Below, piece by piece: positions 21,201 to 34,752 of a stretch of 40,410 bases of DNA. Positions within the stretch are counted from its first letter, which is position 1, and each line of letters starts with the position of its first letter. Source of the DNA: a virus; the IMG/VR virus record IMGVR_UViG_3300042861_001312, positions 1-40,410 of that record; one strand, written 5' to 3'. A program made the translations under genes and the position numbers. Below the pieces are notes generated by a model, which saw nothing but the letters and a program-made list of their open reading frames with translations, did not search any database and had not been told where the DNA came from.

Positions 21201-22190
21201 ACCGAAGAGTCATATGGTGGTGTTATATTGTATGAATACATAGTTGGTTGTAATTCTAAAAATGAAATTACAATTTTCTCAAGTTGTCTACCAACTGAAC
21301 CAAATTCCAATATATGTTTTAGAGGTGGGTCTGAGGCAATTGGTACTTGGAATTGTACTATAGAAAAATCCGGATTTTGGAATGGAAAACCTTATTATCA
21401 AATGTTGGATACTAATGATTGTACAACACCTCTCGAATTGGGAGGTAATGGACTATATGTTTGGTGGAATAACACTTCAAATCAATGGGAGTTTACTGAT
21501 GAATTAGGTGTTAATACCGGATATTTTTTTAGTTATAATGAAAATCCGGGATATTTACCATTAACTGATACATATTATTGGGTTATTATTGACCCGGATT
21601 TTGTTATGTTCTCTTCAACATTAGGTAATTGTTGTTTTTGTGTTAGAATTGAATATATAGATGCGGCGACTTATGGAGGGACTTACCTTGATTGTGATGG
21701 AATAACTCAAAATTGGATTATACCTGAAGCGGGTGATTCATATACTTATTTATGTACTTCAAATCCTGACAGTATAACTTGGAATATACAACCTGATAAT
21801 ATCATAATATATGGTGAATGTGTTAATAATGAATGTTTAATACCAACACCAAGTAATATTTGTTTTACCGGTGGTGGTGAGACACCTGGTCCATTTACTT
21901 GTACTGTTGTACCTGAAACAGGTTTAATAAATGGAAAACCATATTATAAAGCGGTTATGGGTGATTGTACAACACAATTTGAAGCTGGTTCTCCAATATA
22001 CATATGGTTTTCGGTGTCAGGTGATTATGTAGGTTATTGGGTTGTTTCTGAATTAAATAACGCAACATTTGGTAATGTATTTTCATATTTTGGTGACTAT
22101 GACATAAACTATTATCCTATTGGTAATTGGGAAAGTTTAGAGACAAATTATTTTATAAGTAATTCGTCATTCGGTGATTGTCCCGCTTAA
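18210..22190 (+). CDS. Giant adhesin/tail-tip protein: seven SprB-like repeats, Thr-Pro linker, two NGKPYY domains
   Basis: 1326 residues. Residues about 1-575 hold seven tandem units of roughly 75 residues with the SprB-repeat pattern: Cys, NGS/DGx, GGTPPYxY, a Trp/Tyr strand, then LSSGTYTxxVTDxxGC. The clearest unit has [19 protein letters not shown] followed by [20 protein letters not shown]. SprB is the mobile gliding adhesin of Bacteroidota. Residues 719-819 are a Thr-Pro linker. Residues about 820-1095 are an unrecognised beta domain. Two copies of another domain follow (about 1033-1150 and 1220-1326), each with ICFxGGxE, NGKPYY, CTT and a terminal G-[DN]-C. This is most likely the receptor-binding protein or long tail spike at the end of the baseplate operon. 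It is followed by a bidirectional terminator. Virion location is inferred from the operon. Confidence 0.75.
20364..20666 (+). repeat. Thr-Pro low-complexity linker DNA (ACACCAACACC-type repeats)
   Basis: About 100 codons of alternating Thr and Pro made from short repeats such as CCAACACCAACAGTAACA, which occurs twice (near 20551 and 20592). The same oligonucleotides occur in inverted orientation in the - strand fibre genes near 24.7, 32.2, 33.0, 33.6 and 34.1 kb. As protein it would be an extended flexible stalk between domains; as DNA it is a possible site for recombination. Confidence 0.85.
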
Positions 22191-22296
22191 TAAATAACAT
22201 ATGAGGGTTAAGAGATTTTAATAAATACCCCTTTTAATTAAACTATTAATGGAATAGGTTCGATGTAGACTGAACTAGTATAAATTAATAGATAAT

Positions 22297-22328
22297 AAAA
22301 AACCCCTCCGTTAAAGAGGGGTTTTAAT
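22297..22328. terminator. Bidirectional intrinsic terminator between convergent operons
   Basis: A perfect 10-bp stem (22299-22308, AAAACCCCTC, with 22316-22325, GAGGGGTTTT) has a 7-nt loop. On the - strand it is followed by a run of T (TTTTTTATTATC), on the + strand by TTTTAATTT. It can end both the adhesin transcript and the resolvase/fibre transcript. The rest of the 22191-22296 gap shows no gene. Confidence 0.9.
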
Positions 22329-22928
22329 TTACCATATATTTTCTTGTTTCATATGACCTAAAACACAACAATAAGCGTCTGTTTGGTCAAAATTCTCTTT
22401 TTTAAGAGTGTTGTTCCTTGTGTATTGCCAAGTGATTTGAGGTTCTTTCTTGGCTATTAACTCCCATATAATTAGTTTCTTATCAATGTCTTTTGGTAAA
22501 CCACCGAATAATACAAATTTACCTTTATCATTTTCTTTAACTAATTCAGGGAAGGCGAACTTACGTGAATTATATGTTGATATAAAGTCAGGAACCACAC
22601 CTAAAACGTCGTAAATTTCTTTTGTGACCAAAGTATTAAACCTTAATAAAGTTTGGACTGTATAGACATTATTTGAGTTTAATAAAGGTTCTTCAATAAT
22701 AACTTTACTAATACCCATATTTTTATAGTCTAAAAGTTTAGTTCTAAATATTTCACCTTTAAGAAGTAACTCTTTTATTTTATTTTCTTCTTTTGGTTTT
22801 GGTGTTGGTGAAATGTGAGTTAATTCTAATAATTCTCTACTTTGTATGTCAAATAATGCCCAACCAATAGTTTTGGTTGACACATCAAGCCCCAAAACTT
22901 TAGGGCTTTCTTTTAATGTTTTTTTCAT
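22329..22928 (-). CDS. Holliday junction resolvase, RuvC-like
   Basis: 199 residues with the RNase H-fold acidic residues in RuvC order: D15 in VLGLDVSTKTIGWALFD, E79/E80 in VIIEEP, and D181/D184 in DQTDAYCC (RuvC has DxxDA at this place). Such enzymes cut four-way DNA junctions symmetrically; in phages they debranch replicated DNA before packaging. It is the last gene of the - strand fibre array, 3 nt after the stop of the preceding fibre gene, and its 3' end touches a bidirectional terminator. Its placement with fibre genes rather than with the replication module on the right is notable. Late expression would fit a packaging role. The N-terminal 10 residues before the first strand are basic. 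Confidence 0.88.
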   Translation of the reverse strand: MKKTLKESPKVLGLDVSTKTIGWALFDIQSRELLELTHISPTPKPKEENKIKELLLKGEIFRTKLLDYKNMGISKVIIEEPLLNSNNVYTVQTLLRFNTLVTKEIYDVLGVVPDFISTYNSRKFAFPELVKENDKGKFVLFGGLPKDIDKKLIIWELIAKKEPQITWQYTRNNTLKKENFDQTDAYCCVLGHMKQENIW

Positions 22929-22931
22929 ATG

Positions 22932-25364
22932 TTAAAAATCAAATTTTACTAAAAACTGTTGAATACCCTGTCTTTGTACAGGAGATTGTAGCTTTGATAC
23001 AATCATAAGATTCATTTGGTTATCGTAAAGACCAATTTCTGAAATATATGGTGGGATACCTTGTGACCAAGTTGGGTTTGATGAGTTTTGGAATTCTGCT
23101 TGACCAAGATTTATTTTGTACCTCATTTCGTAAATGGTCGCTTGAATATCGGTTTCTAATGACCCGTAGAAGTAATATTCGTCACCAAAATTAAGTGTTT
23201 GTCCTGTTTGTCCCACAGTTGGTAATGAGATAAAATTACTTAAAATATATGGGTTTGCGGTGTTATATAAATCATTAGTGATGACAAATGTGTTTTGAGT
23301 TATACCACTTTGAGTAAGATACCCGTTAATTGTTGTTGCACTTAATTGGTTACTAAAATCAATTATCTTCCATTCAGACGATACTGGTCTAGTGTCACCT
23401 GTAACTCGTTGACAAATTATTTGTAATTTATTTGCTACAAAACCATTAACAAGTGTATTACCTGTAATTTGTTTTAAACAATTAAATTCGTCACCAAATC
23501 TAACGGCAACATTTTGACTACCGGGTGTTCCACAATCAACGTTTGGTCCTAATATTGACGAGTAATAGTTACAATGTAATGAATTAGTTGCTCCGGATGA
23601 TGTATTGGTTAATAAATAACTAACATACATTGTTTCATTTACATTTGATAATACTCCGGCAAATGATGATTGACTAATACCACAACTATTTGGAACTACC
23701 AATGACGTTGTTGCTGCGGGTAAAGTCCAATTACGATTTGATTTATACGATAATGCGGCAATTAATTCTTCATCATCAATTACAATAATTTTTTGGTCAG
23801 GAAATACTTTCCCAACTCTATTTGGTTGTCCGTTAACATTATTTGGGTGTGTGTCCCATAACATATAATAACGAATACCAGGTGTATTCATATTACTATT
23901 TTTACTTGACTGAATATAATGAGGTTTAAATAATATTGATGGACTAATTGTTAAATTATCATCCGGTGGTAATACATAAAATGTTTCACCATAACAACAT
24001 TCAGGGTTTTTATGCCACATTAACCAAGGTAAATGTAGTTTAAAGTTTCTGGCGTCACCGGTAGTATCTTCGGCAATAGTTCCATCAACAGGTTGTTCTA
24101 ACGCAAATTTTTCACCATAGAAAAAATCAATAGTGTTATTTGTGTAGTGAATAATCGCAATTGATTTTTGTTCTTTAGGTGTTACAACGATTTTATTGTT
24201 TAATGAATCATAATAATATACAGAATCTTCAATATCACCGTTTAAATCAACAAAAGTTTGACCACTATTAGACATATAACCTAAATACTCTTTAGTTCCA
24301 ATATATGATTTAGACCCAAATGTTTTGTAGTTTTGTATTGCGTTTACCCCCGTTTCAATTAACCCTGCTGGATTCTCAGACCAAGGAATATTCATATTCC
24401 ACACTTTAACATCAAATTCGTCAGTATTACAAATTGATTCAAAATTAATAACGTCCGGATTCCAATGTGGTGTTGGAGTAATACTATCGTATAAATCGGT
24501 CATATTTGGTGGATATACTAATGTTCTAACGTAGGTACATGCTGACAATATGTATGAATAGTTTGGTGTAACTCTATCTAATGTGATAACATTTAAACAG
24601 ATATCGACAATTTTATAAGTTAATATGTTAAAACAACTATCAACGTTAACAAATGTATTAACCACCGGAGTTGGTGTACATCCGGTTGGGGTTGTAACAC
24701 AACAAGTTGCTGATGGTGTTGGTGTTGGTAGAGGTAATGCGCAAGCGTCATATGATGGTGTTGGTGTCGGGGTTGGTGTTGATGTAGGTGTTACTGAAAT
24801 TGGTCCTGTTCCACAAGAAATAGTATTTCCATCAAAATAAATTGTGATTAAATCACCTTTTGCGGGTAATCTAACAATATTGGCGTTACATCCTGAGTAA
24901 ATTATTTTAATTTGTGTTCCACCGGTAAATGTTGATATATCAACAACATAGTTGGAGTTTATTACGTATTGGTTATCGGTATATGCACTCCAAGTTGATG
25001 GTGAGGATGATGTGTCTCCACTAAAAAATCCTCTCATCGTTGCTCTGTTATAAATCGGGGAAACTGCGGGGTCAGAAAATGGTATACCATATGTATTATT
25101 ATCGTTTGAATCAACGTAAATTGGGTATTTGATATTTTGTTTATTTCTTTGACCCGGTGCGGAATTTTGAGAGTTAAAATTAGGTTCTAATATATTATTA
25201 TTAGCCTGATTATATGATGTACCTGTTAACGTATTGTATGATACCTCACTATCACCTATTTGAAAAAATGAAATATTAAAATTACCTTGAGATAGTTTTA
25301 ATCTACCTGTGTCGGTTAATCTTGTGTTGATTAATGCTGATGTATTTTTAAGTATATATGCCAT
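22932..25364 (-). CDS. Tail fibre/baseplate-associated fibre protein with Thr-Pro linkers
   Basis: 810 residues. The N-terminus (NTSALINTRLTDTGRLKLSQ, then GNFNISFFQIGDSEVSYN) looks like the virion-attachment end of phage tail-collar/fibre proteins, and the C-terminus has the matching pattern PPYISEIGLYDNQMNLMIVS ending in FLVKFDF. Between them, Thr-Pro linkers occur at about residues 190-232 (24669-24797), with Cys-rich pieces CALPLP and CCVTTP. No chaperone peptidase or lysin motif is seen. A TATTTAT box lies exactly 3 nt before its ATG, so it may have its own promoter although it follows another fibre gene by only 26 nt. The long + strand frame at 24625-24840 is a shadow of its linker. Confidence 0.7.
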   Translation of the reverse strand: MAYILKNTSALINTRLTDTGRLKLSQGNFNISFFQIGDSEVSYNTLTGTSYNQANNNILEPNFNSQNSAPGQRNKQNIKYPIYVDSNDNNTYGIPFSDPAVSPIYNRATMRGFFSGDTSSSPSTWSAYTDNQYVINSNYVVDISTFTGGTQIKIIYSGCNANIVRLPAKGDLITIYFDGNTISCGTGPISVTPTSTPTPTPTPSYDACALPLPTPTPSATCCVTTPTGCTPTPVVNTFVNVDSCFNILTYKIVDICLNVITLDRVTPNYSYILSACTYVRTLVYPPNMTDLYDSITPTPHWNPDVINFESICNTDEFDVKVWNMNIPWSENPAGLIETGVNAIQNYKTFGSKSYIGTKEYLGYMSNSGQTFVDLNGDIEDSVYYYDSLNNKIVVTPKEQKSIAIIHYTNNTIDFFYGEKFALEQPVDGTIAEDTTGDARNFKLHLPWLMWHKNPECCYGETFYVLPPDDNLTISPSILFKPHYIQSSKNSNMNTPGIRYYMLWDTHPNNVNGQPNRVGKVFPDQKIIVIDDEELIAALSYKSNRNWTLPAATTSLVVPNSCGISQSSFAGVLSNVNETMYVSYLLTNTSSGATNSLHCNYYSSILGPNVDCGTPGSQNVAVRFGDEFNCLKQITGNTLVNGFVANKLQIICQRVTGDTRPVSSEWKIIDFSNQLSATTINGYLTQSGITQNTFVITNDLYNTANPYILSNFISLPTVGQTGQTLNFGDEYYFYGSLETDIQATIYEMRYKINLGQAEFQNSSNPTWSQGIPPYISEIGLYDNQMNLMIVSKLQSPVQRQGIQQFLVKFDF

Positions 25365-25367
25365 ACT

Positions 25368-25375
25368 GATAAATA
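25368..25375 (-). promoter_or_regulatory. TATTTATC box 3 nt before a fibre start codon
   Basis: On the - strand TATTTATC is followed by AGT and then the ATG of the 810-residue fibre gene. It lies in the 26-nt gap after the preceding - strand gene. Same motif and same spacing as the boxes at 1266, 29717 and 31538, so it is a candidate late promoter giving a leaderless mRNA. Confidence 0.45.
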
Positions 25376-25390
25376 TTCTATATTTTATTA

Positions 25391-26671
25391 TTAATTAATT
25401 TTTATTGAACAACAATCACACCCACTAATAACTGCATTACTAATTGAGTAAATGTCATCACTATACCCTACAACACATTTACCTGTAATTGTTTTATCAA
25501 CTCTTGATGTTGTACTTATTGTTATTGTGTCACTATTAGTGATTGTTAATGAGTTCCAAGTATTGTTTATATTTGATTGGAATATATAATCAGTTTGACA
25601 CCCTGCGGTTGTGTTGATAGATGTTGTATTACCTGTTATAGTACTATTAATAGTGGTTGCACTTAGGTTTTTATATAATATTGTTCCCGTTGTTAAAATT
25701 GACGTACCACTTGTTGGCGATGAATAGAAACTATTGGTATGAATTAAATCAAATGTTATTGTCGCTCCTTCAGGTAGTGGTGGTGTAATAACTACTGTTG
25801 TTTCATATTCATTTACCACTGATATGTTATTATTTACAGGTATTGTTTTAGATGTGCTTAATGATATAGTATACATTGTTGATGGTACAGAACTTTCAAT
25901 AGTTTGAGAACTTGTGTAAACATTACCTAATGAATCAAGAACTGTCAAAGTATAAATACCGCTACAAAGGTTAGTAAAAATAGGTGATGACGAATAAGTT
26001 ACTCCATTATCTATTGAATAACTAAATGGGGGGTTATCTAAATCAACATTAAAAATTATACTACCATCACATAAACAAGTAGGTTGATTAACACTTCTTT
26101 TAAAATTACGTTCGTAAATTGAGTAAGAACAATCACCTAATGATGATGTTATAAACACAGTGTTTGTACCACCAAAACTTTCCCAATCTAAAGGTGGATT
26201 TGAATCCACTGAGTTTGGTGATAGTATTGTATTACCGGCTCCTACTGGTTGGTAATTATTGATAATCCAATTATCATTATTTAAAGTCCGAGTAATTGTT
26301 ATGTTTGAATTTGAATCATCTACCCAAGAAGGGAAACCTCCGTATAATCCGTTTGGGATAAAATGTTTATAAACATCCGATGGTAATGCTTTTGATTCGA
26401 ATTCCAAACAAAAATCATTATATATTATTGTTGTTGGTGTTGGAATGGTTATAAAGGTCCCACAATATTCGTTAAATATAACAATCGATGAGGGTATACC
26501 GTCAGTTTGTATTGTTACACCCGCAAGTAATGTATCTCGGTCTATATTTTCCGCATTTGTTAAGGATGGGTAAAGTAATGGAATTACACCATTTAATTGA
26601 TTAAGGTAAATGATATATGGTCCTGGTGATGTTGTTCCTGCTGATAGTGTTATTGTATAATATTTATTCAT
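25391..26671 (-). CDS. Fibre-array protein: anchor-like N-terminus, NG-type domain, one SprB-like repeat
   Basis: 426 residues. The N-terminal segment (about 1-75) contains TTSPGPYIIYLNQ and an IFNEYC ending, paralogous to the start of the next upstream gene (TSPGPFNIYLDS ... IENYC). Residues about 87-181 resemble the repeated domain of the 1326-residue adhesin (PNGLYGGFPSW ... SSLGDC). Residues about 195-258 are one SprB-like repeat (CDGSIIFNVD, NPPFSYSIDNG, LCSGIYTLTVLDSLG). The remainder is a Thr/Ser-rich beta region ending CDCCSIKIN. The ATG is 2 nt after the stop of the upstream - strand gene, so they are co-transcribed. It is probably a side fibre or fibre tip; the binding target is unknown. 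Confidence 0.65.
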   Translation of the reverse strand: MNKYYTITLSAGTTSPGPYIIYLNQLNGVIPLLYPSLTNAENIDRDTLLAGVTIQTDGIPSSIVIFNEYCGTFITIPTPTTIIYNDFCLEFESKALPSDVYKHFIPNGLYGGFPSWVDDSNSNITITRTLNNDNWIINNYQPVGAGNTILSPNSVDSNPPLDWESFGGTNTVFITSSLGDCSYSIYERNFKRSVNQPTCLCDGSIIFNVDLDNPPFSYSIDNGVTYSSSPIFTNLCSGIYTLTVLDSLGNVYTSSQTIESSVPSTMYTISLSTSKTIPVNNNISVVNEYETTVVITPPLPEGATITFDLIHTNSFYSSPTSGTSILTTGTILYKNLSATTINSTITGNTTSINTTAGCQTDYIFQSNINNTWNSLTITNSDTITISTTSRVDKTITGKCVVGYSDDIYSISNAVISGCDCCSIKIN

Positions 26672-26673
26672 AA

Positions 26674-28926
26674 TTATCCGATTATATATGTTGATGATGA
26701 ATATGTGACATTTCCTCCTGAATATCTGTATGCTAAAATTGCGTTATTAAAATTAGTGTTTGCACTATAATTGACTATAGGTGCCGACCATATTTCAAAA
26801 TTACGTGTGTCTGCGGAATTAGGAAATAATATTGTATAATAACAAAGATATGCTGAGTTATAGGATGACCCATATATTGAAGTATTTACCCCAAGATTTT
26901 TATAGTTACATACTGTCCCGGATAATGAAGGTATTATTGAAGGTGATGTTCCTGAATATGGATATGTATTTGTGGTCCATTGATTGGTAGAGACATTATA
27001 TCCAATTGTTTGAGCGGAAACCGTAGAAGTGGTTGCTGTTGCGTACCATAATGTTTCAAATGGGTTAGAATAATATATACCATACCACCCAAAACTTGTA
27101 TTGGCGGAAAAATATTGATTATAATTGGTTGTTGTTGCAGTTGATGCGAAGTTAAGATTCATTACATTATTAATAATTACGGGGCAATTAATGTCACAGT
27201 TAGATATTGTGTATGCACTTGTGATTGTGTTTGCGGTAATATTAAAAAAATAATTACCGGTTGATGTTGTTCCGGTTAATACTGTTGATGATGGGTGGAT
27301 TTGTATGCTAGTTTTACTACTACCATCACCACAATTATTTGGGTGAGGTTTTGAAGGGAACTGCATATAAAAAAACCTGTAATACCCTATATTTGTGTTA
27401 TTAGTACTATATCCTAATCCGTTTGAATAGTTAATAGAGTTCACCCAAGAATTATAATATGTTGATATTACAGTAGATGAACCGGTAACCCCAAAAACAC
27501 CCCTATTACTACCATCAGTTAAATTTGTTTTATTATATGTTATATCATTTGTGTCTGTTTGACATATAGATATGAAGCCTGGTGTATAAGTATAACTATT
27601 TGTACACACTTTACTATTATAATAAAAAAGAGGGTTACTATTATATTGTAATTGAGGTGAATTTAAGGAAAAAATATCATCAAATCTACCTAATTGTGGT
27701 GACCAAATTTTATTAAAGTTTTGATAAGGAATACTCCCACTATTGGAGGTATCGTAATACTTAAAATAATCCTCATTATATAAAGTGTTCAAAGAACAGG
27801 CAGATAGTGAAAATTTTACGTATGTTTGACAATCCCCTGTAATTCCAGTTATTGTTGAACCAATGATTTTGTATGGGTTAGTATATGAACAACTATCACA
27901 ATTAAAATTATCTAAACACGTTATAAGTAAGTCCCAATCGGTATTTGCTTCTGCGGGAATTATATCAATAATTATTTTATCACCATTATTTACTGTTAAT
28001 CCTGTTAAACAAGTTATTTTTGTAAAATAACTAGTGGTTAGAGCTGATTTAGAAATTACAGTTGGTGTAAATTCAAAGGTATTATTATTTATACCAATTA
28101 CCCAATTTTCCAAACCAATTATATTTCCACCATAACTACTACCGCTAAATGATAATTTAAATGTGTCAGGAATTGATTTACCTTGAAATTTCCAAGCAAT
28201 AAATTTTGTGGTCGGAGATAACTGATATGTTGATGAAACTGGTTGAGGTGTTCCTTGACTTCTTGAACTAAATATAAGGTTATGATTATAACCGCTAGCC
28301 CAATATTGAGTTTTTGTGTTAGTTCGATTAAAACAAGTTAATGGTTCTATTGTTGTTGTTGGAAAACAGTCACCATCAAACAATATACTATTGGTTCCAC
28401 CTGTATTTGAAAAAGTTAACCCACTTACAATTACTTTTTGAATAATAGGTGTATAAACACCTTCAGTTAAAGGTATTGATGCTGTCCCTAAAAATGGGTG
28501 AGGTATATCATATTCTCCTGAAAAAACTGAACCAAATCCCGTTCTTTTTGCTAATGTTGTAGTATTATTTGGGCCATACCAATGAATAACATAGTCCGTA
28601 ATAGTTTGGCAAGACCCTGTTAAAATTCCACAAGATAACCTTGTTATTGTTGTTGCGGAATAATTAGATAATCCTAACTTACAACTATCACATACGTTGT
28701 TGTCTTGAATTGTTATTTCAAAACAATAATTTTCAATGGTATCTTTAAACCCTAAACTAGTTGTTCCTGTTGGAACTATAATAATATAGGGACAATTTGT
28801 TAACTCATTAAGTGTTGCGGAAGAAAATGGTGTTGACGTATAGTCACTATCTAAATAGATATTGAAAGGTCCTGGTGATGTAACACTAGAATTAATACAA
28901 GTTGATGCTGAAAATGTTGATGGCAT
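26674..28926 (-). CDS. Fibre-array protein with anchor-like N-terminus, large beta-rich body
   Basis: 750 residues. Residues about 1-75 (VTSPGPFNIYLDSDYTS ... IENYCFEITIQD) match the N-terminal segment of the 426-residue neighbour, suggesting a shared attachment domain. Cys-x-x-Cys pairs follow: CDSCKLG near residue 78 and a second NCDSC near 343. A segment FIAWKFQGKSIPDTFKLSFS at about 243-262 precedes a lectin-like beta region, but I cannot name the fold. The body is Asn/Ser/Thr/Tyr-rich, without charged coiled coils or membrane helices. It starts 7 nt after the stop of the upstream gene. Tail fibre is the best call from context. Confidence 0.6.
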   Translation of the reverse strand: MPSTFSASTCINSSVTSPGPFNIYLDSDYTSTPFSSATLNELTNCPYIIIVPTGTTSLGFKDTIENYCFEITIQDNNVCDSCKLGLSNYSATTITRLSCGILTGSCQTITDYVIHWYGPNNTTTLAKRTGFGSVFSGEYDIPHPFLGTASIPLTEGVYTPIIQKVIVSGLTFSNTGGTNSILFDGDCFPTTTIEPLTCFNRTNTKTQYWASGYNHNLIFSSRSQGTPQPVSSTYQLSPTTKFIAWKFQGKSIPDTFKLSFSGSSYGGNIIGLENWVIGINNNTFEFTPTVISKSALTTSYFTKITCLTGLTVNNGDKIIIDIIPAEANTDWDLLITCLDNFNCDSCSYTNPYKIIGSTITGITGDCQTYVKFSLSACSLNTLYNEDYFKYYDTSNSGSIPYQNFNKIWSPQLGRFDDIFSLNSPQLQYNSNPLFYYNSKVCTNSYTYTPGFISICQTDTNDITYNKTNLTDGSNRGVFGVTGSSTVISTYYNSWVNSINYSNGLGYSTNNTNIGYYRFFYMQFPSKPHPNNCGDGSSKTSIQIHPSSTVLTGTTSTGNYFFNITANTITSAYTISNCDINCPVIINNVMNLNFASTATTTNYNQYFSANTSFGWYGIYYSNPFETLWYATATTSTVSAQTIGYNVSTNQWTTNTYPYSGTSPSIIPSLSGTVCNYKNLGVNTSIYGSSYNSAYLCYYTILFPNSADTRNFEIWSAPIVNYSANTNFNNAILAYRYSGGNVTYSSSTYIIG

Positions 28927-28933
28927 ATATTTT

Positions 28934-29623
28934 TTAAGTTAAATCAAATGTGTATCCGGACATAGCGGTAGGTAAACAATTATCGATATCTTGTTCCACA
29001 ATTGTAACATTAAATGAACAATCCGGTTCAACGTATAATGTACAAACAGTTGTTGCGGTAAAATCTCCCCAATAATCCACGGTTGTTGCGGTATATGAAC
29101 CATTTCCAACTTCATTAATTGCTGGTGATTCGTTAATATTATTGTCACCCCATACCCAAGTAGTTATATATGGTGCGGTTCCTCCTGATATTGAAACAGA
29201 AACTTCACCGTCAAGAGAACTTGATGTTGTTGGTTGAGATACCTCACATTCAACTATCATTGGAAGGATGGTTATTATTCCACATTCATTTTTATATCCG
29301 ACAATTGTTGGATTTGGTGTGATTGGTGGTGTGTAACAAGGGCTAACCAATTGTGTACAAGTTTCACAATCATATGATGCAAAACTAGGTGTACCATTAT
29401 ATATTGATATATTAGGTAATGTTGTATTATTTAATGTGACACCACTATATTCTACACATCCTGAAAAAATAATGTTTCCATTACTACCGGAAATAGATAT
29501 AAAATATTGAGTTCCAACGGTATCTGTGAACCCGGGAAAAGATACGAATGGTTTTGAATTGTTAGGTAAACCAAAAGGTTCTAACCCCTGACAACACGAA
29601 TTAAAATAATATGTTTGTGACAT
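28934..29623 (-). CDS. Small fibre-array protein with a SprB-like C-terminal unit
   Basis: 229 residues. The N-terminus (SQTYYFNSCCQGLEPFGLPN) is Cys-rich and followed by strands ending in SGCVEYSG; this may be a distant version of the anchor segment seen in the neighbours, but the match is weak. Residues about 140-205 follow a SprB-like layout (LDGEVSVSISGGTAPYITTW, then NGSYTATTVDYWGDF). It is the first gene of the left - strand block and is divergent from the + strand gene at 29728. A TATTTATA box sits 19 nt upstream of its ATG. It is probably a short fibre or fibre cap. Confidence 0.6.
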   Translation of the reverse strand: MSQTYYFNSCCQGLEPFGLPNNSKPFVSFPGFTDTVGTQYFISISGSNGNIIFSGCVEYSGVTLNNTTLPNISIYNGTPSFASYDCETCTQLVSPCYTPPITPNPTIVGYKNECGIITILPMIVECEVSQPTTSSSLDGEVSVSISGGTAPYITTWVWGDNNINESPAINEVGNGSYTATTVDYWGDFTATTVCTLYVEPDCSFNVTIVEQDIDNCLPTAMSGYTFDLT

Positions 29624-29642
29624 TATATGTGTTTTATTTTAC

Positions 29643-29650
29643 TATAAATA
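29643..29650 (-). promoter_or_regulatory. TATTTATA box in the divergent gap (reads TATAAATA on the + strand)
   Basis: Read on the - strand this is TATTTATA, 19 nt before the ATG of the 229-residue gene. Read on the + strand it is TATAAATA, the T4 late-promoter consensus, pointing to the gene at 29728. The sequence alone does not say which direction is used, although the other boxes of the window favour the TATTTATA reading. Confidence 0.35.
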
Positions 29651-29716
29651 ATCTAAAGTTTGATTTTATTAAAAATATAATTGACATTTGTTTTTAATAA
29701 ATGGTGTGTTGGGTGA

Positions 29717-29724
29717 TATTTATA
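29717..29724 (+). promoter_or_regulatory. TATTTATA box 3 nt before the 60-codon gene
   Basis: TATTTATA is followed by GAT and the ATG at 29728. It is the same spacing as at 1266-1273. This box also argues that the upstream in-frame ATG at 29701 is not the start, because the box would then lie inside the gene. Confidence 0.45.
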
Positions 29725-29727
29725 GAT

Positions 29728-29910
29728 ATGAAACTTATAGATACAATATCTAATGTTGTTACGGAAGCCAAAGATGCTTATGAATTGGCGTGTGACAGAG
29801 GTGTTCCTGAGAAGGAACTTGATAGATTAGAAAAAAACTACTACGAGTCCTTAAAACTTTTAAGGATATATGAAAATTTAGGTAAGAGAGAAAATAAACA
29901 ATCTGAATAA
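29728..29910 (+). CDS. Small charged helical protein, unknown function
   Basis: 60 residues (MKLIDTISNVVTEAKDAYEL at the start), predicted to be almost all helix with a coiled-coil look (PEKELDRLEKNYYESLKLLR). The ATG at 29728 is chosen over 29701 because a TATTTATA box ends 3 nt before it and because the extra residues (MVCWVIFID) look unlike the rest. It is the only + strand gene inside a 12-kb - strand fibre array and is convergent with the 538-residue fibre gene, 7 nt from its stop. No terminator is visible, so its transcript may run antisense into that fibre mRNA. No family is recognised; small assembly chaperone or regulator are guesses. Confidence 0.6.
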   Translation: MKLIDTISNVVTEAKDAYELACDRGVPEKELDRLEKNYYESLKLLRIYENLGKRENKQSE

Positions 29911-29917
29911 AAATTAA

Positions 29918-31534
29918 TTATCTTGCGATTTCTGTTATTTTTACGTAAAATCCGGTATTAGGGTATATAGTAATAGTATCATCTGAAGAATCTCTTCTAA
30001 CATTTACTGCCCAACCATATCCTGTTGTACTACTATTAGTTACTCTACCCGCTAATGGGAACAATGTACCACTTCGTGTACCACCACCTGAACCATTAGC
30101 CCAAACTTGTCGTTGAACACCGATTTCAACCCCATTCCAAGTTATTTGAGAAAAGAATGAATCGCCCGCGGCTCCATCAACAAAATACATAGCGTATACT
30201 TCAAAGAAAATATATGACGATGTAGAAAGAGGTGTATATGTTCCGGAAACTACGGCAGTGTAAATATTTGTGTTGTTTGTGTAATCTGAAGTAAAACTTA
30301 AATCACTTGCACTAAATAATTTAGTTTGAATTGTTTGTCCAGCAACCCAAGCGTTAGCTGTTACACTACCAACAACAACCAAGTTACCGGAATCTGAAAT
30401 ACTAAAACATAAATTGTTGTAAGCACTATTAACAATTTCTAATCCACCGGTATTATTTACCCTAAAGGTTTTATTTATGTTAGTTGCTCCGGCTGCCGTG
30501 TTTGTTACTTTAATAAAGTCTGTATAACCTGTACCACCAATAGTATTACTACCACTAAACACAATCATAGATTGATTATTACTGGCGTTTAAAATTGCAG
30601 AACCATAAGTACCTGTACTAGTATAGTTACTACCATTATAACTCATTCCAGATATTGTAGTTGCTGACACTGATGTTGCACCAAAAGTACCTCTCACATC
30701 TAAATTATAATTTAGTGTTGGATTACTTGTGCTTGTGTTAATACCAACAGAACCATTACCATCTGCTTGGAGTAATAAATTACCTGAACTTGTTCCTCCA
30801 TTACTTCTAACATTTATTGATGAATATGTTACACCACTTGGTGTGAAAAAAAACATTCTAGCCCCTGAACTACCATCAACAAAGTTACGTGAATTAATTA
30901 AAAGTGGGTAATCAGTTGTTGTTGGTGTTATAGATACTACACCATCAATACTTCCACCTGACAAAGGTAGATATAAACCTGATGTACTACCTCCGGGTAG
31001 ATAAACCCTCCAATTAGCGTTAGTACTTGTGTAACCACTAATACCTTCTATATTGGAACTTGTCCACCCACTTAAAAATGCTTGACCGGCAGATGAACGA
31101 TTATTAATTACTGTTGTATAATCAGAATAGGTTACAGAAGAAAACCCGGTAAGTCCCGATAGATTATTCCATAATGTGTCATAATTCGGAATAACATATT
31201 GATAAACTTTATCGGTTTCGTGAACATACACCATCATACCCAATCTTCTTCTACCTGAAGAAATATTGTCAGAATTTAAGGTTAAATAATCCGGAGATAA
31301 AAATGTTCCATTACCTTTTGTATAACGTATTGGGATTGTGTTTGCTGATAATTGAATTAACGATGGATATGATGTTGCGGTTAAAGTTAACGACAAATCG
31401 GATAGGTTATATACTTCCATATAACCACCAACATTAAGATTAGAAAAATTAGTTCCAAAAACAGATGTTCTTGAAACGGATAATGGCGTAGATACTTGAA
31501 CGCTTGATATTGGATTTTTGTACGGTACTGACAT
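29918..31534 (-). CDS. Tail fibre protein with GNVGI-type shaft repeat and C-terminal knob
   Basis: 538 residues. The N-terminal part has GRRRLGMMVYVHETDKVYQY (about 94-113), a segment common at the base of fibre-like proteins. The shaft includes LLLQADGNGSVGINTSTSNP followed by YNLDVRGTFG (about 258-288), close to the GNVGIGTxxPxxxLDVxG repeat of phage fibres and spikes. The C-terminal 120 residues (YIFFEVYAMYFVDGAAGD ... FYVKITEIAR) look like a compact beta knob and contain no intramolecular chaperone peptidase (no S74-type Ser-Lys dyad recognised). Expression may be driven by the box 3 nt before the ATG. It is likely a trimeric receptor-binding fibre. Confidence 0.75.
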   Translation of the reverse strand: MSVPYKNPISSVQVSTPLSVSRTSVFGTNFSNLNVGGYMEVYNLSDLSLTLTATSYPSLIQLSANTIPIRYTKGNGTFLSPDYLTLNSDNISSGRRRLGMMVYVHETDKVYQYVIPNYDTLWNNLSGLTGFSSVTYSDYTTVINNRSSAGQAFLSGWTSSNIEGISGYTSTNANWRVYLPGGSTSGLYLPLSGGSIDGVVSITPTTTDYPLLINSRNFVDGSSGARMFFFTPSGVTYSSINVRSNGGTSSGNLLLQADGNGSVGINTSTSNPTLNYNLDVRGTFGATSVSATTISGMSYNGSNYTSTGTYGSAILNASNNQSMIVFSGSNTIGGTGYTDFIKVTNTAAGATNINKTFRVNNTGGLEIVNSAYNNLCFSISDSGNLVVVGSVTANAWVAGQTIQTKLFSASDLSFTSDYTNNTNIYTAVVSGTYTPLSTSSYIFFEVYAMYFVDGAAGDSFFSQITWNGVEIGVQRQVWANGSGGGTRSGTLFPLAGRVTNSSTTGYGWAVNVRRDSSDDTITIYPNTGFYVKITEIAR

Positions 31535-31537
31535 AAT

Positions 31538-31545
31538 AATAAATA
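31538..31545 (-). promoter_or_regulatory. TATTTATT box 3 nt before a fibre start codon
   Basis: On the - strand TATTTATT is followed by ATT and the ATG at 31534. It occupies nearly all of the 11-nt gap after the stop codon of the upstream gene (ends 31546), so a -33 element, if any, would lie inside that gene. Confidence 0.45.
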
Positions 31546-32565
31546 TTATGTTTTTGTATTTCCTTTAAAGAATATTGAAGATGATAAAGATGGTGGTGGA
31601 ATCGAACTTGGGATTAAACAAGATGGGTCAATCCAAAGAACTCGATATACGTTTGATGGTATTGCGGCACCACTTGAAACAACAACATTAGTTGATGATA
31701 ATATAGTGTCAGGAATTAAATTATAACCAATATCATTTGAACAAGGTATGTTTGAACCAATGTCTACAGTCATATTTGTCATTGAACCACCAACAGCGTT
31801 TAATGGAATCCAAAGAGAATAGAAATATTGGATACCTGTATTAACTTGAGATGTTGATACCTCAATTGTGTTGAAAGTATATTGGTCTTGTGAACATCCA
31901 AAAGTATCTGTTGTTGTACCTGTTGTTTGTTTAATATATCCTTTTAATGTTGAAACATTTGTTATAAAGTTTCCATTACTTCCGGTAAATCCTGAGTAGT
32001 GAATGTAGATATTTAAATCGTTAGAATAACTACTAACTGATGGAACACCTCCGTTACCCCATCCTAAGAAACTAGTTGAACCACTATTATACATATAATT
32101 ACCTAAATTAGTTAATGATGAGGTGTCTTGTGGTTCCGGAACCAAATAAACATATGGGTCAAACACATATGGGTAAGTAGGTGTTGGAGTATGTGTTGGT
32201 GTTATACTCGGTGTTGGAGTATGTGTTGGTGTTATACTTGGTGTAACCGTATTAGATGGTGTTAAACTAATTGTTGGCGTTATTGATGGTGTGATAGTAG
32301 GTGTGATAGTAGGCGTGGGTGTTAAAGTTGGTGTGATGTAGATACAATCATACACGATAAACTTCTCACAACCATCTGATGTTATAATTTTAATTCCAAC
32401 AGCGGGTGCCATATCAAATGGCGGTGGTAATATAATTTCCACTGACGCAGGAACGGGAGTATTAATTTGTGAAATATACCCACAATTATTCCCATAGACA
32501 TCACATACGTAAATATCGTAGGGGTAATTTAAACCGGTTATTGAATTTAATATTATTGATGTCAT
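31546..32565 (-). CDS. Fibre-array protein: anchor domain, Thr-Pro linker, C-terminal beta domain
   Basis: 339 residues in three parts. Residues about 1-73 (SIILNSITGLNYPYDIYVCD ... SDGCEKFIVYDC) are clearly paralogous to the 73-residue protein at the start of the array (NILINNISGATPFNVYLCD). Residues about 75-135 are a Thr-Pro linker with a 10-residue period (THTPTPSITP twice), encoded by a 30-bp DNA repeat. Residues about 138-339 form an unrecognised beta-rich domain (YVYLVPEPQDTSSLTNLGNY; two cysteines near CSQDQY and CSNDIGY) ending in a Pro/Ser-rich tail. The ATG is 3 nt after the stop of the upstream gene. The architecture of anchor, stalk and head suggests an adhesin fibre. Confidence 0.7.
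   Translation of the reverse strand: MTSIILNSITGLNYPYDIYVCDVYGNNCGYISQINTPVPASVEIILPPPFDMAPAVGIKIITSDGCEKFIVYDCIYITPTLTPTPTITPTITPSITPTISLTPSNTVTPSITPTHTPTPSITPTHTPTPTYPYVFDPYVYLVPEPQDTSSLTNLGNYMYNSGSTSFLGWGNGGVPSVSSYSNDLNIYIHYSGFTGSNGNFITNVSTLKGYIKQTTGTTTDTFGCSQDQYTFNTIEVSTSQVNTGIQYFYSLWIPLNAVGGSMTNMTVDIGSNIPCSNDIGYNLIPDTILSSTNVVVSSGAAIPSNVYRVLWIDPSCLIPSSIPPPSLSSSIFFKGNTKT
32181..32240 (-). repeat. 30-bp tandem repeat in a Thr-Pro linker (2 copies)
   Basis: 32181-32210 and 32211-32240 are identical except at one base (C at 32209, T at 32239). Each encodes ten residues on the - strand. A closely related 25-nt stretch (one mismatch) occurs at 33573-33597 in the neighbouring fibre gene. Confidence 0.95.
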
Positions 32566-32568
32566 AGT

Positions 32569-34503
32569 TTAACAATATAACCAATTAGTTCCATTAATTT
32601 TAACATTAAAGTATAGTGGTGAGTTGTCATTAATTTGAATTGATGCTGGATTATCTTCACCACAATATGATGTAAAGTCACCAGAATTTTCACCTATACC
32701 GAAAGTAATTGGTTGTCTAATACCAACACCTCTTTGGTCGGTTATATAGAAATTATACGTTTCTCCAACACACAATTTATCAATAAATTGTGGTGAGTTT
32801 GAATTTGTACTATAACTACCATATATTGGTGTACCTAACGTTGTTAAGTATGTGTAACAATTATTGGTATCTGATTGGTTTTTATAATAAATATAAACTT
32901 GATAACCTACCGGTGGTATTACATTAGAATCCTTAGTTAAATAAGCGTATACAGATGGTACTGAATATGTTGATGAACACGATATACAATTATTTTGTGT
33001 AGGAGTTGGAGTTAATGTAGGTGTTGCAGTTGGTGTTGGAGAAAATGGTATTGGACAAGTAAAATATGCGTTCCAACCAATACTTTGACCAACATAAGGG
33101 TTGTATAAATACATTTGTATAGTTGGATTTGAGGATGTTTTAGATAAATTTGTTGAACCTGACACAGTATTAACTTTAGGGTATCCATCAGATAAAATCT
33201 CATTTGGGGATGTCCCACCTGAAGGTAATGGATAGACTCCTCCAGTAATAGGTGCGGTTTTTCCTGATAAATAACTATTAAATGTTGTTCTTGATGAGAA
33301 CCCTAATGTATTATAGGATGAACTACCAACATATCCCGTATCATATAATAATTCCACACCATCATATATTATAAATCTATCTGGTTGTGCAAGTCCGTTA
33401 TACGTAAATGTAATGTTACCTGACACCGAACTACCGGTTAAAGATATTTGATACATATGTGGGTAATATAGGTTTGTATAAGTACTTCCTAAATTTTGAT
33501 TACAACCGCTATATACAATACCTTGTGAAGGTGTTGGGGTTGGTGTTAATGTGCTTGTTGGTGTTATCGTTGGTGTTGGTGTATGTGTTGGTGTTATCGT
33601 TGGTGTAGGTGTTGTTGTCTTTGTTGGTGTATTTGTTGGTGTTGGTGTTGGTGGTATGTCTAAACAATAAATACAATCACCTAAACTTGATAAACCATAT
33701 GGTCCTGAAGTGATAATAATTTTATTTTCATTTCCGTGGTCATAATCAATACCTAAATATGAAATACATTGTAGTTTACCATCTACGTAGGCACCAAATA
33801 CGGTAAAGTTCACCAATTCAACACTATCAGGTAATCCTGACACAGAATTTGAATAATAGTATTGACTTGAATCATAACAATCTTGCCATTTCATTGAGCC
33901 AGGGCAAATAATTTGTCCTGTGATTGCTGAAAAAAGAGCGAAACCTGAACCATCACAATTTCTAGCAATGTCTTTAGAATAGAAAGGTCTTCGTTTTAAG
34001 GTATTTTCGTCGTATTGTGTTGGTGTTACGGTTGGTGTGGCAGTTGGTGTTGGAGTGTAAGTATAACCGCTAGCGTCAATACCTATTATTGAACAATAGT
34101 TAGTAGATGATGGTGTTATTGTAATTGTTGGTGTTACACTTATTGTTGGGGTTGGTGTTGGTGTGGGTATATAATCACAATCAAATATGGCTGTAAAATC
34201 TAACACATCACAATTTTTAGTGGGTGTTGGAGTAGGTGTAGGACACGCCCCACTAAAAACGTAAATATTTGATAAATCAGGGCAAGAGCTAACGCAAGGA
34301 TATTTCCCTGTTAAATAACAAGTACCTCCAAGGGTTTCGGATAAACACCAATAACTTGTGGTTCCTGTGTAGTAGTAGATAGTCCAACCACTAGTTTGAC
34401 CTGTCCAATAAGAACGACCATTATAGGTTCCACCTGTTATGTAGTTATCGTCGGCACCTACTAATCCGGTATTTTTTATACAATATGTAGAACTACAAGA
34501 CAT
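32569..34503 (-). CDS. Multi-module fibre-array protein with five Thr-Pro linkers
   Basis: 644 residues built from six modules separated by five Thr-Pro linkers (DNA near 34219-34245, 34111-34171, 34017-34053, 33525-33655 and 33000-33042). The first module (GGTYNGRSYWTGQTSGWTIY, CLSETLGGTC) resembles the NGKPYY domain at the end of the 1326-residue adhesin. The fourth (YSGCNQNLGSTYTNLYYPHM with QPDRFIIYDG) looks like a calcium-binding or CUB-like beta sandwich, but this is only an impression. The last module (CGEDNPASIQINDNSPLYFN) ends at a Cys. It starts 1 nt after the stop of the 73-residue anchor-domain gene and precedes another anchor-domain gene by 3 nt. It is probably an adhesin fibre; six modules in one chain suggest a flexible beads-on-string layout. 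Confidence 0.65.
   Translation of the reverse strand: MSCSSTYCIKNTGLVGADDNYITGGTYNGRSYWTGQTSGWTIYYYTGTTSYWCLSETLGGTCYLTGKYPCVSSCPDLSNIYVFSGACPTPTPTPTKNCDVLDFTAIFDCDYIPTPTPTPTISVTPTITITPSSTNYCSIIGIDASGYTYTPTPTATPTVTPTQYDENTLKRRPFYSKDIARNCDGSGFALFSAITGQIICPGSMKWQDCYDSSQYYYSNSVSGLPDSVELVNFTVFGAYVDGKLQCISYLGIDYDHGNENKIIITSGPYGLSSLGDCIYCLDIPPTPTPTNTPTKTTTPTPTITPTHTPTPTITPTSTLTPTPTPSQGIVYSGCNQNLGSTYTNLYYPHMYQISLTGSSVSGNITFTYNGLAQPDRFIIYDGVELLYDTGYVGSSSYNTLGFSSRTTFNSYLSGKTAPITGGVYPLPSGGTSPNEILSDGYPKVNTVSGSTNLSKTSSNPTIQMYLYNPYVGQSIGWNAYFTCPIPFSPTPTATPTLTPTPTQNNCISCSSTYSVPSVYAYLTKDSNVIPPVGYQVYIYYKNQSDTNNCYTYLTTLGTPIYGSYSTNSNSPQFIDKLCVGETYNFYITDQRGVGIRQPITFGIGENSGDFTSYCGEDNPASIQINDNSPLYFNVKINGTNWLYC
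33557..33610 (-). repeat. Imperfect 30-bp-period repeat in a Thr-Pro linker
   Basis: 33557-33580 and 33587-33610 match at 23 of 24 bases (T at 33577, A at 33607), 30 bp apart, encoding a PTPTITPT-type repeat. The intervening piece shares 24 of 25 bases with 32181-32205, in direct orientation in another gene. Confidence 0.9.
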
Positions 34504-34504
34504 A

Positions 34505-34726
34505 TTAAATTAAGATATTTGAAATTGATGTGCAACCATTATTATCAATAACTTTAAGATTAAATGACACTTGACCTTCCATTATTGACGGAACCTGAAA
34601 ATTGTATGGTAGCGACATTGTAGGGATTGTGTCAATATAAACGCAAGTAACGTTTGATTGGTCACATAGATAGACATTGAACGGTGTTGCACCTGATATG
34701 TTGTTAATTAAAATATTCGTTGGCAT
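34505..34726 (-). CDS. Stand-alone anchor-domain protein of the fibre array
   Basis: 73 residues when started at the ATG at 34726 (PTNILINNISGATPFNVYLC). This start is chosen over 34747 because the alignment with the N-terminus of the 339-residue fibre protein begins here, and the upstream ATG lies inside a TATTTATG box. The whole protein is one copy of the anchor-like domain (hydrophobic strands, ATPFNVYLCD, then CVYIDTIPTM and VIDNNGCTSIS), with no stalk or head. It is the first gene of the - strand array, 1 nt before the multi-module fibre gene. It could be a free adaptor that joins fibres to the virion, or the remnant or split-off 5' part of a fibre gene. Confidence 0.65.
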   Translation of the reverse strand: MPTNILINNISGATPFNVYLCDQSNVTCVYIDTIPTMSLPYNFQVPSIMEGQVSFNLKVIDNNGCTSISNILI

Positions 34727-34744
34727 TTGCTTAAAAGTTATTAT

Positions 34745-34752
34745 CATAAATA
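34745..34752 (-). promoter_or_regulatory. TATTTATG box heading the fibre array
   Basis: On the - strand TATTTATG lies 18 nt before the ATG at 34726 and is the only candidate promoter element before the whole - strand array. It shares the 62-nt space up to 34814 with the divergent primase promoter. Confidence 0.4.

What the first reader, a model, noticed from the sequence alone, without database searches (positions are those of the whole stretch)
22932..34726. Eight-gene modular fibre array on the opposite strand to the baseplate operon
Seen: consecutive - strand genes, mostly 1-26 nt apart, share parts in different combinations: anchor-like N-termini, Thr-Pro stalks, NG-type domains, SprB-like repeats and distinct C-terminal heads. 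Known: most myoviruses carry one to three fibre genes. Inference: this is an expanded adhesin repertoire, with several different fibres per virion or alternatives selected by recombination.
Basis: partly seen in the sequence, partly recalled or inferred. Interest (0 to 1): 0.5.

Follow-up and report, generated by a model that had tools for sequence, protein, structure and literature searches.

The report
Flipping, mix-and-match phage fibre gene cluster
A large uncultured phage carries a run of fibre-like genes built from interchangeable anchors, stalks and tips, and in its relatives the block has been turned around several times, apparently by ordinary recombination in or near the stalk DNA, which can move tips between anchors.

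Summary
Corrections: a plus-strand 60-aa gene (29728-29910) interrupts it, and a RuvC-like gene (22329-22928) follows 3 nt downstream. Part-sharing holds for some members (H80/F339 anchor, NG-like domains, SprB-like repeats, Thr-Pro stalks), not for E538 or most of A810 and C750. No member matches a known fibre family; 'fibre' is inference.

New result: in 141 related IMG/VR contigs (best hits of three capped scans) the block from the RuvC-like gene into the array lies as in the window in 50, inverted in 87, otherwise rearranged in 4. A tree of flanking genes needs at least 6 orientation changes (5 without one recent case). At one switch the tip on anchor N1326 in one clade sits on anchor F339 in its inverted sister clade, beside the RuvC-like gene in both. 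Tips recur on different anchors elsewhere. No invertase or reverse transcriptase was found in 11 large relatives; a UvsX-like recombinase was.

Best reading: an adhesin locus reshuffled by crossovers between inward-facing, stalk-bearing genes. Programmed switching is unproven, and distant-locus tests of tip movement were inconclusive.

The parts
18210..22190 (+). N1326: inward-facing gene at the baseplate side; SprB-repeat anchor (aa 1-715), Thr-Pro stalk, post-stalk domain (815-1040), two NG-like domains (1040-1326)
   Evidence: Pfam SprB, 4 stretches; against N1326 of 11 relatives: anchor 54-74% aa, post-stalk domain 30-43%, distal NG-like domains no match in any of the 11
20358..20669 (+). 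Thr-Pro stalk DNA of N1326
   Evidence: stalk runs; TRF arrays; 120-nt 73% inverted repeat with the G644 stalk; DNA homology with closest relative L085 stops at 20645
22329..22928 (-). RuvC-like resolvase gene, last gene of the minus-strand run
   Evidence: PHROG 159, E 2e-4; within two ORFs of A810 in 143 of 143 loci that reach beyond A810
22932..25364 (-). A810: conserved protein of unknown fold, core of the invertible block
   Evidence: 282 IMG/VR stretches encode relatives; no PHROG, Pfam or PDB sequence match; AlphaFold model poor, pLDDT 48.7
25391..26671 (-). B426: C750-like N-terminus, NG-like domain, SprB-like repeat
   Evidence: profile and BLASTP matches
26674..28926 (-). C750: large accessory protein, N-terminus shared with B426
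   Evidence: profile match
28934..29623 (-). D229: accessory protein
   Evidence: present in part of the relatives; weak profile match to G644 mid part, 74.8
29728..29910 (+). small 60-aa opposite-strand gene interrupting the array
   Evidence: ORF; short opposite-strand ORFs at this place in many relatives
29918..31534 (-). E538: protein with variable C-terminus, found together with the F339 tip
   Evidence: among the loci held, only L085, L092 and L108 match both; DNA over 29547-30596 is 93% to L108 against 77% over RuvC-A810
31546..32565 (-). F339: Ig-like anchor (about aa 1-75), stalk, C-terminal tip
   Evidence: anchor = H80; stalk; tip found in 3 relatives at 85-88%
32569..34503 (-). G644: inward-facing gene at the primase side; NG-like N-terminus, several stalks, variable C-terminus
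33514..33663 (-). main Thr-Pro stalk DNA of G644, imperfect inverted repeat partner of the N1326 stalk
34505..34747 (-). H80: free-standing anchor domain
   Evidence: AlphaFold pLDDT 86.8, six strands; best PDB matches are Ig-like or FN3-like domains, E 0.01-0.05, TM about 0.5-0.6, none at E 0.001

Best explanation
The region 18210-34747 is an adhesin (probably tail-fibre) locus of a T4-like phage, organised as two sets of inward-facing genes: N1326 on the baseplate side, and H80-G644-F339 on the primase side. Between them lies a block with the A810 and RuvC-like genes. Stalk-bearing proteins are built as conserved N-terminal anchor, Thr-Pro stalk, variable C-terminal tip. Because the flanking genes face each other, their stalk DNA forms imperfect inverted repeats. 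Recombination between them turns the block around and, when the crossover falls in a stalk, leaves anchors in place while tips travel with the block, so anchors get new tips. The same exchange between co-infecting phages brings in foreign tips. The enzyme is most likely the phage's own UvsX-type recombination system, not an invertase. Shown: recurrent inversion, conserved anchors with exchanged tips, one switch where tip and block moved together, no detected invertase or reverse transcriptase, UvsX-like gene in relatives. Inferred: that the products are virion fibres, that tips bind receptors, that the crossover usually lies in the stalk, and the enzyme.
For: Orientation: of the first 80 loci, 51 show both flanks and all 51 agree (15 window-like, 36 inverted). 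Enlarged set, 146 loci: 91 show both flanks, 87 agree (24 window-like, 63 inverted), 4 do not (L211-L214, a second rearrangement). At contig level (141 contigs after removing 5 repeats): 50, 87 and 4. Tree of flanking genes (81 distinct rows): window-like state needs at least 6 changes, 5 forced by starred branches; 5 without L142, 4 also without five long branches. Tree of A810 (65 rows): 6, 4 forced. L142 (window-like) against L138/L140 (inverted), about 97% identical DNA, carries both new junctions in one contig. Sister clades: tip of N1326 in L124 (window-like) = tip of F339 in L190 (66% over 210 aa, E 3e-62) and L204 (46% over 219 aa) (inverted), next to RuvC in both; DNA aligns from RuvC into the tip (77% over 1220 nt, L190) or to within the stalk (70% over 1403 nt, L204) and not into the anchor. 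N1326 tip of L111 (window-like) matches G644 tip of L135 (inverted), 41% over 232 aa. Same tips on different anchors: 28 pairs, 25 of 117 tips with a known anchor, e.g. N1326 of L164 and F339 of L205, L207, L208, L209, 74-76% over 234 aa. Anchors align in 69 of 69 close pairs, tips have no protein match in 28 of 69, in 5 of 13 lineages. By a word filter, inverted 12-mers at the two block ends that recur in two or more of 23 lineages are all stalk words. No PF00239, PF00589 or PF00078 in 11 contigs of 128-318 kb. UvsX-like: weak RecA match in 12 of 13 contigs, over the cut-off in 1, PHROG 97 in the 2 tested. T4 UvsX joins ends at 3-4 nt homologies (PMC8262927, abstract and passages).
Against: Exact matches between N1326 and G644 are short (median 14 nt) and barely above a codon-shuffled control (13.25; 9 of 72 loci exceed all 20 shuffles), so the stalk DNA is not kept as a long repeat. 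N1326 and G644 tips within one locus never matched each other (0 of 24). Stalk 12-mers also match between unrelated lineages (mean 8.7 against 13.7 in own pairs). Across distant loci, tips did not clearly follow the block end: RuvC-side tips across orientations 8 of 2335 pairs with different anchors; N1326-window-like versus G644-inverted 17 of 1504, N1326 across orientations 4 of 1024, G644 across orientations 4 of 423, G644-window-like versus N1326-inverted 4 of 288. The reciprocal half of the L124/L190 exchange was not seen, and L111 and L114 of the same clade do not show it. In L142 G644 has a tip of its usual family while N1326 has lost its tip. In 8 of 13 lineages no tip lacked a match, and 23 of the 28 cases lie in one lineage. 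In the window's own clade the domain after the stalk is shared at 30-43% with all 11 relatives compared. Most clades have one fixed orientation, so flipping is slow at the level of assembled consensus. No fibre family match.
Confidence: 0.62

Rival explanations
1. A Mu/P1-type programmed switch: a site-specific invertase, encoded elsewhere in the phage or supplied by the host in trans, inverts the block at short sites and alternates the expressed fibre set.
For: Same principle as the Mu G segment, where inversion changes the tail-fibre genes expressed (PMC4406740, passages). A bifidophage locus inverted at an 8-bp site with no recombinase beside it has been reported, with supply in trans proposed (PMC6109161, abstract and passages).
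Against: No serine or tyrosine recombinase in 11 large contigs, though these may be incomplete; no non-stalk inverted 12-mer shared by two or more of 23 lineages, though shorter or degenerate sites are not excluded; orientation fixed in most clades; differing breakpoints (F339-type genes end on either side).
Confidence: 0.1
2. Rare, undirected genome rearrangement at a region free to rearrange (convergent gene ends), with tips exchanged only by ordinary recombination between phages; inversion and tip exchange are unrelated events.
For: Flips are slow and clade-fixed; a second, larger rearrangement carrying primase and exonuclease exists in L211-L214; tips are replaced without a flip (L137/L165 and L148/L165, all inverted); B426 and A810 transferred between lineages in L088; distant-locus tests do not show tips following the block.
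Against: At L124 versus L190/L204 the tip sits at the same block end on a different anchor, which unrelated events would not predict; recurring inverted 12-mers at the block ends are stalk words only.
Confidence: 0.25
3. Assembly artefact: Thr-Pro tracts make short-read assemblers join the wrong flanks.
For: Stalk tracts are repetitive and contig L142 ends near a stalk.
Against: Both flanks agree in 87 of 91 loci that show both, and the 4 others (L211-L214) share one arrangement in contigs from four samples; orientation follows the tree in contigs from many separate samples; L142 holds two mutually consistent new junctions.
Confidence: 0.03

Closest known systems
Mu G segment / P1 Cin, and shufflons Min and Rin (invertible tail-fibre or RBP loci)
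   Same: A constant N-terminal part with exchangeable C-terminal parts, changed by inversion of DNA (PMC4406740 and PMC6109161, passages).
   Different: No invertase found (11 contigs), no shared short crossover site found, a large block (about 10 kb in the window) with a conserved A810 gene and a RuvC-like gene inside, several different anchors on both sides, slow clade-level flips.
T4-superfamily fibre tip recombination (gp37/gp38 adhesins; recalled, source paper not held)
   Same: T4-type baseplate genes beside the locus (gp25, gp6), tips exchanged while anchors stay.
   Different: The joint appears to be a Thr-Pro stalk, different anchors share tips, and the locus inverts.
Campylobacter group II phages CP21/CP220 (PMC4546147, abstract and passages)
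   Same: T4-related lytic phages in which modules are inverted between relatives, which the authors think may come from recombination between repeat regions.
   Different: There the repeats are long regions of 72-86-bp units between modules; here the candidate repeats are protein-coding stalks and the outcome is fused adhesin genes.
Flavobacterium phage immuto (MW353175) and Microcystis phage Mel-JY01 (PP395634)
   Same: Nearest records with a named host by baseplate gp6, 26-27% identity over 99%; an uncultured phage record (LR756508) has 28.5%.
   Different: No match to A810 in the 50,697 phage records.

Membership tests
Invertible tail-fibre switch (Mu G / P1 C type) | Site-specific serine (or tyrosine) invertase in the phage genome | tested here: not met
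   PF00239 and PF00589: 0 of 11 large relatives, controls positive in 10 and 14 of 14; the contigs may be incomplete and the window itself is a 40-kb fragment
Invertible tail-fibre switch (Mu G / P1 C type) | Short conserved inverted crossover sites at both ends | tested here: not met
   59 loci, 23 lineages: no non-stalk inverted 12-mer shared by two or more lineages; shorter or degenerate sites not excluded
Invertible tail-fibre switch (Mu G / P1 C type) | Inversion joins a constant N-terminus to another C-terminus | tested here: inconclusive
   seen between L124 and L190/L204, without the reciprocal half; distant-locus tests inconclusive
Invertible tail-fibre switch (Mu G / P1 C type) | Both orientations in one clonal population | not testable with these tools
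   only assembled consensus contigs; nearest opposite pair is 97.6-97.8% identical in A810
Diversity-generating retroelement | Reverse transcriptase | tested here: not met
   PF00078: 0 of 11 contigs
Known tail-fibre protein families (PHROG, Pfam) | Profile match of array proteins to a fibre family | tested here: not met
   no functional PHROG or Pfam match for the eight proteins; three weak matches to PHROGs of unknown function
Known tail-fibre protein families (PHROG, Pfam) | Presence in virions | not testable with these tools
   no isolate
T4-type myovirus | T4-type baseplate and recombination genes | tested here: met
   gp25-like and gp6-like baseplate wedge proteins, SbcC-like, SbcD-like, primase, UvsX-like in relatives

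The most novel reading that the evidence does not exclude
An invertase-free fibre shuffling locus: low-complexity Thr-Pro stalk coding DNA serves at once as the flexible arm of the adhesin and as a universal recombination joint, so that any anchor can take any tip from the same or another phage, and populations carry both orientations as a standing, recombination-driven host-range switch.
Probability: 0.2. Interest if true: 0.75.

Novelty: new variant of a known kind. Interest (0 to 1): 0.55.

Why it matters
It describes, in a phage group represented by hundreds of metagenome contigs (595 gp6 relatives in a scan that hit its limit) and no A810-bearing isolate in the collection searched, a locus in which adhesin tips move between anchors and a whole block inverts repeatedly. 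If the stalk is the joint, host range in such phages can change by recombination that needs no dedicated enzyme, and fibre repertoires could be read from anchor-stalk-tip structure. The inversion gives a simple marker that long reads can test.

Tried and rejected
Structure of A810: 32-sequence alignment, pLDDT 48.7, PDB fold search without a match at E 0.001; dropped. H80 gave a good model (86.8) but only generic Ig-like matches, none at E 0.001.

Idea that stalk DNA is specially conserved as a long inverted repeat: rejected, observed exact matches are close to the codon-shuffled control.

Test whether tips follow the block end across all distant loci: inconclusive. (protein coverage with composition adjustment) disagreed with the DNA result and was discarded because whole anchors were missed in some pairs; replace it. 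(DNA coverage: N1326 tip under 20% covered in 33 of 70 pairs) overstates replacement where tips are merely diverged, for instance L138/L140, so the protein counts are used. In one search one of the 28 pairs, L087/L088, is close in A810 only; its N1326 anchors are 54% identical. For window versus L085 I first read the DNA drop-out after 20645 as full tip replacement; one search shows that the first domain after the stalk is still 35% identical and only the distal part is unmatched.

Invertase, reverse transcriptase: searched and not found. Named phage relatives of A810: none. Literature: nine full-text searches ran in PubMed Central open papers only; no listing showed this locus, which does not prove that it is unpublished. 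Of seven papers opened I saw found passages only, in some cases including the abstract; three of them (PMC9603124, PMC8042965, PMC1524935) gave nothing used here.

The output was cut in the middle; recompute what is counted. One search dropped loci without both flanks, exact repeats and L211-L214 before its counts. Searches dropped repeated tips and tips under 40 aa.
Full report
What is there. The window is a 40,410-base linear IMG/VR record, GC 32%. ORF calling confirms eight minus-strand genes between 22932 and 34747 with spacers of 26, 2, 7, 294, 11, 3 and 1 nt. The 294-nt gap holds a plus-strand 60-aa ORF, 29728-29910. A RuvC-like gene (PHROG 159, E 2e-4) follows the 810-aa gene by 3 nt. 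Upstream on the plus strand lie gp25-like and gp6-like baseplate genes and several large genes without a PHROG match, ending with a 1326-aa gene that faces the array; beyond the array are a divergent primase, an exonuclease and SbcCD-like genes. I name the genes by length: N1326 (plus strand), then A810, B426, C750, D229, E538, F339, G644, H80 (minus strand).

Shared parts. BLASTP within the window finds N1326-B426 (E 1e-6) and F339-H80 (E 2e-4). Profiles built from relatives add C750-B426 N-termini (probability 94.6) and NG-like domains in G644, B426 and N1326 (59-90; 98 between the two N1326 copies). Pairs with three control proteins reached at most 2.5. The H80 and F339 profiles share members, so their score of 100 is not independent. 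Thr-Pro stalks are in N1326, G644, F339 and, short, in A810. E538 and most of A810 and C750 share nothing detectable. None of the eight matches a functional PHROG or a Pfam family; N1326 has Pfam SprB repeats. H80 models as an Ig-like domain, with no PDB match at E 0.001.

Relatives. A810 has 282 relatives in one IMG/VR scan, 342 and 434 with two other A810 queries; only the best 80 of each were kept, giving 146 loci from 141 contigs. No A810 relative is among 50,697 phage records; gp6 points distantly to Flavobacterium phage immuto, 27%. In 74 distinct complete arrays the length is 6.9-17.7 kb and the number of ORFs of 60 aa or more, RuvC left out, 4-11; the three smallest (L215, L216, L220) keep little more than N1326, A810, RuvC, G644 and, in two, H80. 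RuvC lies within two ORFs of A810 in 143 of 143 loci that reach beyond it.

Inversion. In the window the block RuvC-A810-...-F339 points against the baseplate genes. In many more distant relatives it points the other way, between the same N1326 on one side and G644-H80-primase on the other. Of the first 80 loci, 51 show both flanks and all agree: 15 window-like, 36 inverted. Of all 146 loci, 91 show both flanks: 24 window-like, 63 inverted, and 4 (L211-L214) that disagree because primase and exonuclease are turned too. At contig level the totals are 50, 87 and 4. On a tree of two flanking baseplate proteins (103 rows had both in full, 81 distinct; short search) the window-like state needs at least 6 changes, 5 forced by well supported branches; 5 without L142 and 4 also without five long branches. 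F339-type genes end on either side of the block, so breakpoints differ.

Fresh and sister cases. L142 is window-like while L138 and L140, about 97% identical in DNA, are inverted. L142 contains both new junctions: the G644 tip abuts the far end of the block, and the N1326 stalk is fused, out of frame, to about the last 50 bases of a G644-type tip. N1326 has thereby lost its tip, so L142 may be a dead end. Before comparing the sister clades L111/L114/L124 (window-like) and L190/L193/L204 (inverted) I expected, from a crossover in the stalk, that a tip beside RuvC would sit on N1326 in one and on F339 in the other (this expectation was not written into the notebook beforehand). It does in one: L124 N1326 residues 823-1028 match L190 F339 137-343 at 66% (E 3e-62) and L204 F339 159-373 at 46%. 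DNA aligns from RuvC into the tip for L190 (77% over 1220 nt, plus 57 nt in the stalk) and to within the stalk for L204 (70% over 1403 nt), and not into the anchor. L111 and L114 do not show it, and the reciprocal exchange was not seen. The L111 N1326 tip does match the G644 tip of an inverted locus, L135, at 41% over 232 aa.

Tips and anchors. In 69 close pairs (A810 85-99.95% DNA identity, both tips at least 40 aa, 13 lineages) the N1326 anchor aligns in all 69; the tip has no protein match in 28 and matches over more than 80% in 39. The 28 fall in 5 lineages, 23 of them in one. Across anchors, 28 pairs of tips match (22 N1326-F339, 6 N1326-G644), involving 25 of 117 tips with a known anchor; the strongest is a long tip on N1326 in L164 and on F339 in L205, L207, L208 and L209, 74-76% over 234 aa. 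Within one locus, N1326 and G644 tips matched in 0 of 24. In the window, N1326 shares its anchor with 11 relatives (54-74%), the next domain at 30-43%, and its distal NG-like domains with none of these 11. E538 DNA (29547-30596) is 93% identical to L108 where RuvC-A810 is 77%, which suggests recent transfer. L088 carries B426 and A810 of an L087-like phage (94 and 98%) beside the baseplate genes and N1326 anchor of an L096/L098-like phage (o15086 95%, N1326 87-90%); its RuvC is near-identical to both (99-100%).

Tests that did not decide. If tips follow the block, tips beside RuvC should match across orientations although the anchors differ. They do in 8 of 2335 pairs; other classes are as low. 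Comparing only N1326 and G644 tips of distant loci: predicted classes 17 of 1504 and 4 of 288, same-anchor classes 4 of 1024 and 4 of 423. These counts are not independent and I do not rest on them.

Mechanism. The window's longest inverted repeats are 120 nt, 73%, between the N1326 stalk (20522-20641) and a G644 stalk (33530-33649); a 32-nt pair reaches 91%. Exact matches between N1326 and G644 across 72 loci have a median of 14 nt, close to a control with shuffled synonymous codons (13.25), so there is no sign of selection for a long repeat. At the two block ends of 59 loci, inverted 12-mers recurring in at least two of 23 lineages are stalk words only, by a word filter; mismatched pairs of loci share stalk words too (mean 8.7 against 13.7), as expected if any stalk can pair with any other. 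No serine recombinase, tyrosine recombinase or reverse transcriptase family was found in 11 contigs of 128-318 kb, whose completeness is unknown. A RecA-type match was found in 12 of 13 contigs, over the cut-off in one; two of these proteins match the UvsX-like PHROG (E 2e-17, 5e-13). T4 UvsX can join ends at 3-4 nt (PMC8262927). I therefore favour UvsX-type short-homology recombination between stalks, at about 0.6; inversion itself I hold at about 0.9 and the adhesin role at about 0.85. In checking this report I lowered the overall confidence from 0.65 to 0.62, because tips within one locus never matched, and raised the undirected-rearrangement rival to 0.25.

Known systems. Invertible fibre loci use dedicated invertases and short sites (Mu: PMC4406740; Rin, Min, Cin, Gin: PMC6109161). 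Neither was found here, so I do not file this as a member, though the principle is alike. Campylobacter group II phages show module inversion at repeat regions (PMC4546147). The finding is a new variant of fibre diversification, not a new kind. The host is unknown; SprB repeats and the distant immuto match suggest Bacteroidota.

Noticed in passing
L211-L214 (e.g. L214:12410-22403): A second rearrangement: exonuclease and primase lie between RuvC and H80-G644-F339, so the replication genes were turned as well; four contigs from four samples.
   Followed up: partly
L088: Natural recombinant: B426 and A810 94-98% like L087, baseplate operon and N1326 anchor like L096/L098; RuvC near-identical to both.
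   Followed up: partly
L140:7657-8631: A 324-aa gene (PHROG 4417, unknown function, E 3e-70) sits in the block of many inverted and some window-like relatives and is absent from the window.
   Followed up: partly
L164 (1413-aa N1326) and L208 F339: Very long tip, about 550 aa, that looks leucine-rich-repeat-like by eye, on two different anchors.
   Followed up: no
L176: A second N1326-like gene (727 aa) lies beside G644 on the opposite side of the block.
   Followed up: no
window 22329-22928: RuvC-like gene travels with A810 in every locus that reaches beyond A810; a role in the rearrangements is possible but untested.
   Followed up: partly
window 29728-29910: 60-aa gene on the opposite strand inside the array, with short opposite-strand ORFs at this place in many relatives; function unknown.
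   Followed up: partly
window 4607-10261: 1884-aa plus-strand gene downstream of the baseplate genes with no PHROG match.
   Followed up: no
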